Shown piece by piece: positions 16,235 to 30,990 of a DNA stretch of 64,000 bases (the stretch's first letter is position 1; every line of letters starts with the position of its first letter). The DNA is from Clostridium beijerinckii (GTDB lineage Bacteria > Bacillota > Clostridia > Clostridiales > Clostridiaceae), in the NCBI RefSeq assembly GCF_036699995.1, contig NZ_CP144906.1, forward strand, positions 5,399,501 to 5,463,500. The letters run 5' to 3'. The notes below the pieces were generated by a model. That model was not told where the DNA came from. It did no database searches and saw only the letters and a program-made list of their open reading frames with translations. The position numbers were made by a program, and so were the translations under genes.

Positions 16235-16363
16235 TCATAGTATTCTAATTAATAATGGTGCAAATATATATGCTAAAATCAATAAAACTTCTACCCAACC
16301 AATACCATAAAACATGCCTCCAACACCCTCAAGTTCACTTTTATTTTCTTCCTTATCATTCAT
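16235..16363 (-). CDS. Small single-span membrane peptide (42 aa), cassette copy 1
   Basis: The ATG at 16363 is preceded by GGAGG at 10 bases. The product has a charged N terminus (MNDKEENKSELEGVGG) and one strongly hydrophobic segment from about residue 18 to the end. No family recognised. It lies about 115 bases downstream, on the same strand, of a repeated micro-ORF/terminator element. A second copy of that element at 30.8-31.0 kb is also followed by a short membrane peptide, and both peptides share a LEG motif just before the hydrophobic part. It could be a type I toxin-like peptide, a signalling peptide or a small membrane regulator. Confidence 0.6.
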   Translation of the reverse strand: MNDKEENKSELEGVGGMFYGIGWVEVLLILAYIFAPLLIRIL

Positions 16364-16478
16364 ACCGTACTTTCCTCCATGAATTTAATGATATTAGAAT
16401 TATTTCCCTTGGTATTAAGATTTAAACTACATTAAAACAATTCATTTTTAGTATTTCATTAATTATAAAAAATACAAA

Positions 16479-16642
16479 ACCAGGGTTTATTTTTAAACCC
16501 TGGTCTGTTTCGAAACAAGTGTACTTATGGGGACTTTAAAATCATTTTCGGACTAATCCTAAAATATTATTGTTAAAATCAATGTCCATGAGAACCACCT
16601 CTTTCAGTTATTATTGTGTGTAATATAAAATTAAATATACTA
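16479..16642 (-). repeat. Repeated micro-ORF and terminator element, copy 1
   Basis: About 160 bases resembling 30828-30990 at roughly 80 percent by eye. In transcription order (leftward) it holds a T-rich leader, GGTGGTTCTC directly before a start codon, a 15-codon reading frame, the shared stretch TTTTAAAGTCCC, the palindrome GTTTCGAAAC, and a strong terminator ACCAGGGTTTA / TAAACCCTGGT at 16479-16504 followed by T-rich sequence. The conserved start and ribosome site suggest a translated micro-ORF or leader peptide; a small RNA is the alternative. Confidence 0.65.
16542..16589 (-). CDS. Micro-ORF of 15 codons (copy 1)
   Basis: ATG at 16589 with AGAGGTGG 5 bases upstream. The peptide is MDIDFNNNILGLVRK. 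The second copy encodes a 13-residue version with the same DFNNNILGL core, so the frame is conserved while flanking bases vary. Confidence 0.45.
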   Translation of the reverse strand: MDIDFNNNILGLVRK

Positions 16643-16843
16643 GAATATAAAACCATATATTCCACATAGTATTATTTCTTCTATTAAAAAGCTTATAATT
16701 TTTTTCATCATAATAATTTATATGCACTAGTTAATGCTCAATTAATGGCCCGTGACTTCCACATTCACCTTTCATAATACATTTCATAAATTAGCGTTGA
16801 AAATCCTATTATAATGGATATAATTGTAATAGGAGGTGTTTAA

Positions 16844-17104
16844 ATGGAATCGAATAAACTAAACACTAGACTTTCTTTAGTCGGGGCATTGCTAGGCTTA
16901 ACATTATTCATTATGGGTGGATTATTGAATACTATACTAGATCGTTATATAATAATTATCCCAGCTGTTACTATAGTAATTAGTTTGATATCTTTAATAA
17001 AATCTAAAAAAACTGATATAAAAATTAAAAGTTATTCTTCTTTGGGGTTAATACTTGGACTATTTTACTTTATTTTATCTTTATATGAATTATTAAAATT
17101 ATAA
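16844..17104 (+). CDS. Small membrane protein of unknown function (86 aa)
   Basis: GGAGGTG precedes the ATG by 6 bases. The product has three predicted membrane segments (about 10-27, 33-51 and 65-84) separated by a short basic loop (IKSKKTDIKIKSY). No family recognised. It is a single gene: its neighbours run the other way and a stem-loop follows at 17147-17198. Confidence 0.75.
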   Translation: MESNKLNTRLSLVGALLGLTLFIMGGLLNTILDRYIIIIPAVTIVISLISLIKSKKTDIKIKSYSSLGLILGLFYFILSLYELLKL

Positions 17105-28837: not shown

Positions 28838-29422
28838 TTATTTAATTTTACGTTTGTTATTCTCCCTTATAAGTGTACTTTTAGATATTCCCAGCAATTC
28901 TGCAACTTCATTATAACTCTTATCACCACCATTAATACTCAGCATTGATAACGCATTATCAAGTTGTTTATCCGTATATGATTTCGGTCTACCTTCCTTA
29001 AAGCCTTCTTTAGTCTTAGCTATTGCTTTGCCTGTTTGTGTACGCTCAACTATTGTATTCCGTTCCATCTCTGCCACTGCTAACAATGTAGTTAAAAAGA
29101 ATTTACCCATGCTCGTATTTTCTAATAATCCGACATTTAATACATGAACACTCACACCTTTATTAAATAACTCTTGCACTAACTCTATCCCTTCAACTGT
29201 ATTACGTGCTAATCTATCTAACTTTGAAACAACTAATGTATCGTTTGGCTTTAAATCTTCAATTAGTTGGTTTAATATTGGTCTATCTGTTGTTGTTCCT
29301 GTAAATTGTTCCTTGTATATTATTGCATGGTTATACTTTTCTAATATAACGCTTTCTTGTTGCTCAAAACTATTATTATCTAATTTTCCTTTGCTACTTA
29401 CTCTACAATATCCATAAATCAT
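28838..29422 (-). CDS. Serine recombinase, resolvase/invertase family
   Basis: 194 residues, the normal length of small serine recombinases. The catalytic serine is Ser9 in YGYCRVSS. The catalytic domain continues through VSKLDRLARNTVEG and AEMERNTIVERTQTG, and a C-terminal helix-turn-helix follows (SYNEVAELLGISKSTLIREN). It could resolve cointegrates or invert DNA. Inverted TGACAC-type repeats just upstream (29455-29535) are a candidate binding and crossover site. Confidence 0.93.
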   Translation of the reverse strand: MIYGYCRVSSKGKLDNNSFEQQESVILEKYNHAIIYKEQFTGTTTDRPILNQLIEDLKPNDTLVVSKLDRLARNTVEGIELVQELFNKGVSVHVLNVGLLENTSMGKFFLTTLLAVAEMERNTIVERTQTGKAIAKTKEGFKEGRPKSYTDKQLDNALSMLSINGGDKSYNEVAELLGISKSTLIRENNKRKIK

Positions 29423-30532: not shown

Positions 30533-30634
30533 TTATCTATTTGCCCATATCTTTAACAATTGAAATATCACGACTAAAAAACATATTACTATTATTCTCT
30601 CAGTTGCAATACCCTCTAACTCTAGCGCTACCAT
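30533..30634 (-). CDS. Small single-span membrane peptide (33 aa), cassette copy 2
   Basis: ATG 30634 with AAGGTG 6 bases upstream. The peptide starts MVALELEGIATER, then has one hydrophobic span (IIVICFLVVIFQLLKIW) and a short basic end (ANR). This shape is like type I toxins of Firmicutes. It has its own promoter (TTAACT at 30693-30698, 17 bases, TATAAT at 30670-30675) and the palindrome AATTAACT-TATG-AGTTAATT (30653-30672) at the expected start point. It lies downstream of micro-ORF element copy 2, as the 42-residue peptide does for copy 1. Confidence 0.6.
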   Translation of the reverse strand: MVALELEGIATERIIVICFLVVIFQLLKIWANR

Positions 30635-30652: not shown

Positions 30653-30698
30653 AATTAACTTATGAGTTAATTATACTAAACAATTCATTTAGAGTTAA
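30653..30698 (-). promoter_or_regulatory. Promoter and palindromic operator of the 33-residue peptide
   Basis: Minus strand: TTAACT, 17 bases, TATAAT. The 8-base-pair perfect inverted repeat AATTAACT / AGTTAATT overlaps the -10 box and start point. Confidence 0.6.
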
Positions 30699-30827
30699 TT
30701 TGTTTTATAAACCAAAATAAGTTAATTTTAACGAAATAATAGGACTTTTACAAGAGTTGGTTTGTTATTGTTTGCAGTATACTCTAAACGAACTCCAATA
30801 TATATCTTTTCTAAACAAAATAAAATC

Positions 30828-30990
30828 AAGGCTTATTTTTTAACCTTAGTCTGTTTCGAAACAAGTGTACTATAGGGACTTTAAAATTGTTTTCAGAGTA
30901 ATCCTAAAATATTATTGTTAAAATCATTATCCACGAGAACCACCTATTTCAAATATTATTATGTACAATAATGTAAATATACCTATATAA
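30828..30990 (-). repeat. Repeated micro-ORF and terminator element, copy 2
   Basis: Homologous to 16479-16642. It keeps GGTGGTTCTC before the start codon, the DFNNNILGL frame, TTTTAAAGTCCC and TACACTTGTTTCGAAACAGAC. The terminator stem is weaker here (AAGG / CCTT with extra partial pairing at 30828-30847). Confidence 0.65.
30893..30934 (-). CDS. Micro-ORF of 13 codons (copy 2)
   Basis: GTG start at 30934, AGGTGG 5 bases upstream. The peptide is MDNDFNNNILGLL. Its conserved core with copy 1, despite base changes around it, argues for translation. Confidence 0.4.
   Translation of the reverse strand: MDNDFNNNILGLL

What the first reader, a model, noticed from the sequence alone, without database searches (positions are those of the whole stretch)
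16235..16642. Micro-ORF / terminator / membrane-peptide cassette, copy 1
A 160-base element with a 15-codon ORF (core DFNNNILGL), fixed GGTGGTTCTC ribosome site and strong terminator is followed on the same strand by a 42-residue membrane peptide. The homologous element at 30.8 kb has the same order with a 33-residue membrane peptide. The 13-base word AAACAATTCATTT also lies between element and peptide in both (16436-16448 and 30678-30690), and both peptides have an LEG motif before the hydrophobic part. I know of no described family with this layout. It could be a type I toxin-like system, a peptide signal or an attenuated small-protein operon.
Basis: partly seen in the sequence, partly recalled or inferred. 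Interest (0 to 1): 0.7.

Follow-up and report, generated by a model that had tools for sequence, protein, structure and literature searches.

The report
Hairpin-locked mini-gene of Clostridium
A roughly 170-base free-standing gene, found in one to about ten copies in some Clostridium-family bacteria, appears to make a short RNA whose tiny 15-codon reading frame is folded inside one long hairpin; its job is unknown and it is not tied to the neighbouring membrane peptide.

Summary
The element is real and conserved; the proposed cassette with a membrane peptide is not. On the minus strand, copy 1 (16640-16468) reads as a complete small transcription unit: promoter-like block, strong Shine-Dalgarno site, 15-codon ORF, terminator. 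It occurs in 31 of 206 family genomes, 8 of 46 genera. No Rfam, phage, plasmid or viral match was found at the thresholds used, and none outside the family among 391 class genomes. The 42-residue peptide is in 1 of 68 genus genomes, this one; relatives of the 33-residue peptide lie over 0.5 Mb from element copies. Copy 2 is decaying: GTG start, stop at codon 14, short promoter spacer.

New: the RNA is predicted to fold into one hairpin hiding the ribosome site in 49 of 49 folds checked. ORF substitutions show no synonymous bias, yet the frame is 15-16 codons in 52 of 53 aligned copies (degraded copies left out). RNA structure, perhaps also translation, looks selected more than the peptide. The promoter resembles sigma-E (mother-cell) promoters, inference only. 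Best reading: a new clostridial structured small RNA with a locked micro-ORF.

The parts
16634..16640 (-). copy 1, -35-like block GTATATT
   Evidence: read; block conserved in alignment A2 and similar in other genera
16613..16620 (-). copy 1, -10-like block CACACAAT, 13 nt from the -35 block
   Evidence: sigma-E-like score above shuffles over 53 copies, assignment inferred
16512..16605 (-). copy 1, predicted long hairpin that contains SD, start codon, the whole ORF and the post-stop arm
   Evidence: MFE folds, pair counts, accessibility
16596..16600 (-). copy 1, Shine-Dalgarno core AGGTG, 6 nt before ATG
   Evidence: spacer 6 nt in 41 and 7 nt in 11 of 53 copies, core not found in 1
16542..16589 (-). 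copy 1, 15-codon ORF MDIDFNNNILGLVRK plus TGA
   Evidence: 15 codons in 50, 16 in 2, 13 in 1 of 53 aligned copies
16477..16506 (-). copy 1, intrinsic terminator
   Evidence: all 18 pairs of this helix show double changes in A5, and the sequence differs strongly in L167, L171, L187
30976..30982 (-). copy 2, -35-like block GTATATT
30958..30965 (-). copy 2, -10-like block TACATAAT; spacer only 10 nt
30893..30934 (-). copy 2, decayed ORF: GTG start, VDNDFNNNILGLL then TGA at codon 14
30822..30853 (-). copy 2, terminator-like stem
   Evidence: read; not scanned separately
16238..16363 (-). 42-residue hydrophobic ORF; NOT part of the element
   Evidence: 1 of 68 genus genomes, this one
30536..30634 (-). 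33-residue hydrophobic ORF; NOT part of the element, has relatives elsewhere without it nearby

Best explanation
The element is a self-contained small gene, roughly 170 bp from promoter to terminator, found so far in one bacterial family (Clostridium and seven related genera). Shown by sequence: a conserved promoter-like block, a very strong Shine-Dalgarno site, a 15-codon ORF, a post-stop arm complementary to the 5' half, and an intrinsic terminator; no fixed neighbour. Predicted by folding: the full-length RNA closes into one hairpin that hides the ribosome site and, in most copies, the start codon. Inferred: it is made in the mother cell during sporulation from a sigma-E-type promoter; ribosomes load mainly on the unfinished RNA or when something opens the hairpin; and the selected product is chiefly the RNA, with the open frame letting a ribosome pass and free the post-stop arm, rather than a defined peptide. 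The membrane peptides in this window are bystanders.
For: Distribution: 18 of 68 genus genomes by blastn; 31 of 206 family genomes, 8 of 46 genera, by each of two covariance models. Free-standing: a Pfam scan of 139 of 163 listed neighbour ORFs gave no family in more than 4. Own transcript: a terminator is kept though its sequence differs strongly in L167, L171, L187. Fold: in 34 of 34 and 15 of 15 MFE structures at least 4 of 5 SD bases pair beyond the stop codon; two or more start-codon bases do in 33 of 34 and 14 of 15; z -4.9 to -5.9 for 4 copies, terminator included; SD unpaired probability 0.12 versus 0.29 with the part after ATG shuffled and 0.45 in a truncated RNA, n=53; 25 of 53 pairs, 7 of them outside the terminator, have double changes in A5. 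Frame: 15 or 16 codons in 52 of 53 aligned copies, the one in-frame indel being +3; the stop-to-CACTT distance differs by one base in 11 and two in 1 of the other 52. Promoter: sigma-E-like score mean 12.3 of 15 against 10.4 (sd 0.96) shuffled; sigma-A and sigma-K scores equal the shuffles.
Against: A5 was fitted to the structure; on the unfitted A3 only 2 of 35 ORF-hairpin pairs have a double change. A5 leaves out degraded copies; one of them, L186, has a broken frame and L188 lacks the ORF. No expression data. Sigma-E consensus letters are recalled; the exact consensus is not enriched in 5 genomes (7 hits against 6 for the reversed control, none in this genome), and spoIIIAA upstream regions gave only weak matches (best 13 of 15, mostly 11-12, two of 18 with none). 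The 53 copies are related, so promoter and fold counts are not independent. The truncated RNA opens the SD only partly (above 0.5 in 19 of 53). Depletion of nonsense changes (2 seen, 11.1 expected) vanishes against a same-site null (2 against 3.4), so translation is not proven.
Confidence: 0.42

Rival explanations
1. Functional micropeptide gene: the 15-residue peptide itself (D-F core, L-x-R-K end) is the product, and the hairpin only limits its dose.
For: D4, F5, L12 and K15 change least, with R14 (5, 4, 3, 1 and 5 changes on the tree); length nearly fixed; a stop kept though TGA, TAA and TAG all occur, 11 of 13 changes in the stop codon keeping a stop; the one ORF indel in A5 is +3; strong SD with constant spacing.
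Against: Replacement-to-synonymous ratio near 1 in the reading frame (1.03; other frames 0.84 and 1.03); 39 synonymous and 115 replacement changes against 39.3 and 113.3 expected at the same sites. No synonymous change is counted at D4 or F5; those codons lie in the stem, so RNA pairing can explain them. The purine changes of the stop codon also keep pairing with U.
Confidence: 0.28
2. Type I toxin-like mRNA: a ribosome-hidden small ORF controlled by an antisense RNA, with copies kept on plasmids and chromosomes.
For: 5'-3' pairing that hides the SD is the recalled hallmark of such mRNAs; copies are scattered, and copies in L177 and L178 (genome G046) lie close to Rep3-type plasmid initiator genes.
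Against: Peptide too short and charged to span a membrane (by eye); one weak 9-of-12 promoter-like match on the opposite strand inside copy 1; no conservation seen beyond the terminator in most copies (output partly cut).
Confidence: 0.1
3. Purely noncoding hairpin sRNA; SD and ORF are by-products of a conserved RNA arm that acts on other RNAs or on the ribosome.
For: No synonymous bias; no nonsense avoidance beyond the same-site null; both arms conserved across genera; a left-out copy has a broken frame (L186).
Against: SD-to-start spacing stays 6-7 nt although spacer letters change, and the frame is kept in the aligned copies while the other arm has single-base indels.
Confidence: 0.2

Closest known systems
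Type I toxin mRNAs (recalled: hok, aapA1, tisB)
   Same: Short transcript, strong ribosome site hidden by pairing of the 5' and 3' parts, own terminator
   Different: 15 residues, charged, no membrane helix; no antisense RNA shown; no synonymous bias
Dual-function or peptide-coding bacterial small RNAs (PMC5521070, passages seen; SgrS/SgrT and SR1 recalled)
   Same: Small RNA with a short ORF and terminator, no fixed neighbour
   Different: Here the whole ORF lies inside one predicted hairpin and the peptide shows no purifying selection; no Rfam match
Leader peptides with attenuators (recalled)
   Same: Short ORF followed by an intrinsic terminator
   Different: No gene recurs downstream of the copies examined
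sORF and structured RNA motifs from intergenic scans (PMC6429828, PMC8632094, PMC11109978; passages seen)
   Same: Class of object: conserved intergenic RNA with possible short ORF

Membership tests
Type I toxin-antitoxin | Small hydrophobic, usually membrane-spanning toxin peptide | tested here: not met
   Peptides such as MDNDFNNNILGLLRK and MGNDFEDDYWGLLQK are 15-16 residues with charged ends; judged by eye
Type I toxin-antitoxin | Antisense RNA gene on the opposite strand or nearby | tested here: inconclusive
   One weak opposite-strand promoter-like match inside copy 1; trans-encoded partners not tested
Type I toxin-antitoxin | SD hidden in the full-length mRNA | tested here: met
   SD unpaired 0.12 on average, below 0.2 in 41 of 53; prediction only
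Leader peptide / attenuator | Conserved regulated gene directly downstream | tested here: not met
Known Rfam RNA family | Match at gathering score | tested here: not met
   best sub-threshold match E 0.2 to a Bacteroides sRNA on the other strand
Sigma-E regulon (mother cell) | ATA-type -35 and CATA-type -10 at suitable spacing | tested here: inconclusive
   Above shuffles, but exact consensus not enriched in 5 genomes; spoIIIAA comparison weak
Sigma-E regulon (mother cell) | Loss of expression in a sigE mutant | not testable with these tools
   needs RNA
Conserved micropeptide | Synonymous bias in the frame | tested here: not met
Transposable mini-element | Terminal repeats, target-site duplication, empty sites | not tested
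   no empty-site comparison made

The most novel reading that the evidence does not exclude
A developmental RNA switch in which the act of translation, not the peptide, is what selection keeps: in the sporulating mother cell a ribosome crossing the 15-codon frame peels the hairpin open and frees the conserved post-stop arm, which then acts on other RNAs, so the element reads out ribosome activity during spore formation.
Probability: 0.15. Interest if true: 0.8.

Novelty: new variant of a known kind. Interest (0 to 1): 0.5.

Why it matters
It adds a structured RNA family without an Rfam entry to the clostridia, multicopy in some genomes and cheap to test in a laboratory C. beijerinckii strain. 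If the frame is kept open without selection on the peptide, it is a clean case for asking whether translation itself can be the function of a small ORF. It also warns that conservation of a tiny ORF need not mean a functional peptide.

Tried and rejected
Cassette with membrane peptide: rejected. Shared 13-base word as a regulatory site: near 2 of 49 entries, both in the window. Upstream 23-codon hydrophobic ORF as part of the unit: a close match only at the same locus of one genome, held twice as L024 and L149. Phage or plasmid records: no match, nor in IMG/VR with one strict pattern; yet Rep3-type initiator genes near copies in L177 and L178 suggest that some copies are plasmid-borne. Sigma-70 promoter: score equals shuffles. 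Exact sigma-E consensus scan of 5 genomes: not informative. Nonsense depletion as proof of translation: fails the same-site control. RNAalifold default structure was replaced by the consensus of individual folds. spoIVA upstream regions were not used further as a promoter yardstick. Literature: six searches and passages of PMC3789822, PMC517825, PMC6429828, PMC8632094, PMC11109978 and PMC5521070; the passages shown do not describe this element; supplements could not be read.

Full report
WHAT IS THERE. The element lies on the minus strand. Copy 1 reads, in transcription order: GTATATT (16640-16634), 13 nt, CACACAAT (16620-16613), a short leader, the Shine-Dalgarno core AGGTG (16600-16596), ATG at 16589, fifteen codons MDIDFNNNILGLVRK, TGA at 16544-16542, a ~30-nt conserved post-stop stretch, and a terminator at 16506-16477 with a T-rich tail. 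Copy 2 (30982-30817) is damaged: the promoter spacer has 10 instead of 13 nt, the start is GTG and codon 14 is a stop. This genome shows only these two copies.

HOW WIDELY IT OCCURS. By blastn it is in 18 of 68 genomes of the genus; 56 rows are listed, several of them fragments or short probable chance matches, with ten rows in the richest genome, G012 (nine by covariance model). A covariance model of 34 copies found it in 31 of 206 family genomes, 8 of 46 genera; 225 order genomes gave the same 31. A second model, trained on 53 copies, gave again 31 of 206 and 5 of 391 class genomes, all five in the same family. These large searches used stricter filters that lose weak matches, and E-values of such models are rough, so absence is provisional. 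No match was found in Rfam, phage or plasmid records or, with one strict pattern, IMG/VR.

THE MEMBRANE PEPTIDES ARE NOT PART OF IT. One search listed downstream ORFs for 49 entries, which are 47 distinct places (L024 repeats L149, and L188 is listed twice); apart from the near-identical pair L150/L151 none recurs, and tblastn of the two peptides against these loci found only themselves. The 42-residue peptide is in 1 of 68 genus genomes, this one. The locus of copy 1 is shared with two genomes, G002 (L148) and G003 (L149, the same contig as C. beijerinckii HUN142, L024): the upstream transporter is 97.8 and 90.5% identical, but the gene after the terminator there is a family 4 glycosidase, not the peptide. 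The 33-residue peptide has relatives in two further genomes, in both more than 0.5 Mb from the element copies listed; the one read out (G012) has its own ribosome site and lacks the LEG motif. A Pfam scan of 139 of the 163 neighbour ORFs listed matched 169 families, none in more than four ORFs. Of the 24 left out, 3 were shorter than 64 codons and 21 were picked out by hand, mostly second neighbours; loci without a recognisable ribosome site were not. In the other genera, strong neighbour matches (over 75% identity) occur only between L247/L248, L249/L250, L252/L254, L253/L254, L253/L256 and, across two genera, one protein 2-4 kb downstream in L251/L260; none recurs throughout. So the unit is free-standing.

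THE RNA FOLD. Four transcripts have z-scores of -4.9 to -5.9 against dinucleotide shuffles, terminator included. In 34 of 34 copies and 15 of 15, at least 4 of the 5 SD bases pair beyond the stop codon; at least two start-codon bases do in 33 of 34 and 14 of 15, the exceptions being L175 and L260. The minimum-energy fold is one long hairpin: the SD arm pairs with the end of the post-stop arm, the start codon mostly with CCAU after the stop, and codons 4-6 with the stretch just after the stop. On the unfitted alignment A3, 92.1% of cells pair, but only 2 of the 35 pairs of the ORF hairpin show changes on both sides; 7 of the 18 terminator pairs do. On the 53-copy alignment A5, which was fitted to the structure, 25 of 53 pairs do, 18 in the terminator and 7 in the ORF hairpin (shuffled mean 15.1, 0 of 500 reaching it; slid partners 13-16). 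A clear case is column 17 with 117: A-U in 27, G-C in 15, unpaired in 11. The hairpin is thus well supported by consistent folding and only moderately by covariation. The SD is unpaired with mean probability 0.12 in the full hairpin, 0.29 when the part after ATG is shuffled, and 0.45 when the RNA ends at codon 12, where it exceeds 0.5 in 19 of 53. For A5 I gave 48 of the 60 sources. Those left out were near-duplicates (such as L148, L150), one copy with a foreign terminator (L189), and degraded ones, among them L186, whose frame is broken, L188, which lacks the ORF, and L190, L191, L196, which are fragments.

IS THE ORF TRANSLATED, AND DOES THE PEPTIDE MATTER? For: among the 53 aligned copies the ORF has 15 codons in 50, 16 in 2 and 13 in 1 (copy 2); AGGTG-to-start spacing is 6 or 7 nt in 52; leaving copy 2 aside, the distance from stop to a loosely defined CACTT motif differs from 20 nt by one base in 11 and two in 1 of 52. 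Against peptide selection: for 44 distinct 15-codon ORFs the replacement-to-synonymous ratio is 1.03 in frame, 0.84 and 1.03 in the other two frames. A parsimony count gives 39 synonymous, 115 replacement and 2 nonsense changes, against 39.3, 113.3 and 3.4 expected at the same sites; without three decaying or misaligned rows it is 36, 105 and 0 against 37.2, 102.4 and 1.4. A looser null suggested that nonsense changes are avoided (2 against 11.1), but the same-site control removes that. The stem limits synonymous sites, which weakens the test; codons 2, 3 and 13, mostly unpaired in the folds, took 47 replacement and 14 synonymous changes (no per-codon expectation was computed).

PROMOTER. The block, G[TC]ATATT-N13-CACAYAAT in most copies, scores 12.3 of 15 on average against the recalled sigma-E consensus, 10.4 (sd 0.96) in shuffles; sigma-A and sigma-K scores equal the shuffles (the copies are related, so this is not 53 independent tests). 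A C. [quoted passage not shown] Against this, the exact consensus is not enriched in five of these genomes (7 hits, 6 in the reversed control, none in this genome), and the upstream regions of spoIIIAA gave only weak matches: best 13 of 15, mostly 11-12, none in two of 18. Mother-cell expression is therefore a hypothesis.

HOW IT MOST LIKELY WORKS. Anatomy is shown; the fold is predicted; the rest is inferred. A short RNA is made, probably in sporulation. While it is being made the ribosome site is partly open; once complete, the RNA locks itself. A ribosome that gets in would melt the 5' arm and release the conserved post-stop arm. The selected feature seems to be the RNA and perhaps its translation, more than the peptide. 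The type I toxin analogy holds for the locked ribosome site, not for the peptide, and no partner RNA is known.

NOVELTY. No Rfam family matches, and six literature searches plus passages of six papers did not show it; open-licence papers only, supplements unread. I rate it a new variant of a known kind: a structured small-RNA family with an embedded micro-ORF.

Noticed in passing
L174, L175, L177, L178, L179, L170 upstream of the element: Copies of the second sequence type (peptide MGNDFEDDYWGLLQK and kin) carry an extra similar block of about 25-30 nt (ATAACTTAACAGTAGTAATACTGG-like) before the -35 block; possibly a regulator site.
   Followed up: no
window 16643-16711 (-): A 23-codon hydrophobic ORF ends just before the copy 1 promoter; a 78% identical one lies at the same place in C. 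beijerinckii HUN142.
   Followed up: partly
window 16844-17101 (+): 86-residue hydrophobic protein without a Pfam match, 91% identical in L024/L149 (one contig) and with an 83% identical copy beside a degraded element in L188.
   Followed up: partly
window 28838-29422 (-): Serine resolvase about 1.4 kb from the decaying copy 2; four nearby ORFs scanned have no Pfam match.
   Followed up: no
L177 8197-9207 and L178 3-608 (genome G046): Rep3-type plasmid initiator proteins lie close to element copies; G046 has eight matches by covariance model, all on contigs shorter than 18 kb, so some are probably plasmid-borne.
   Followed up: partly
window 30536-30634 (-); L299, L300: The 33-residue peptide has relatives in two other genomes (48 and 53% identity): a separate small membrane-peptide family.
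   Followed up: partly
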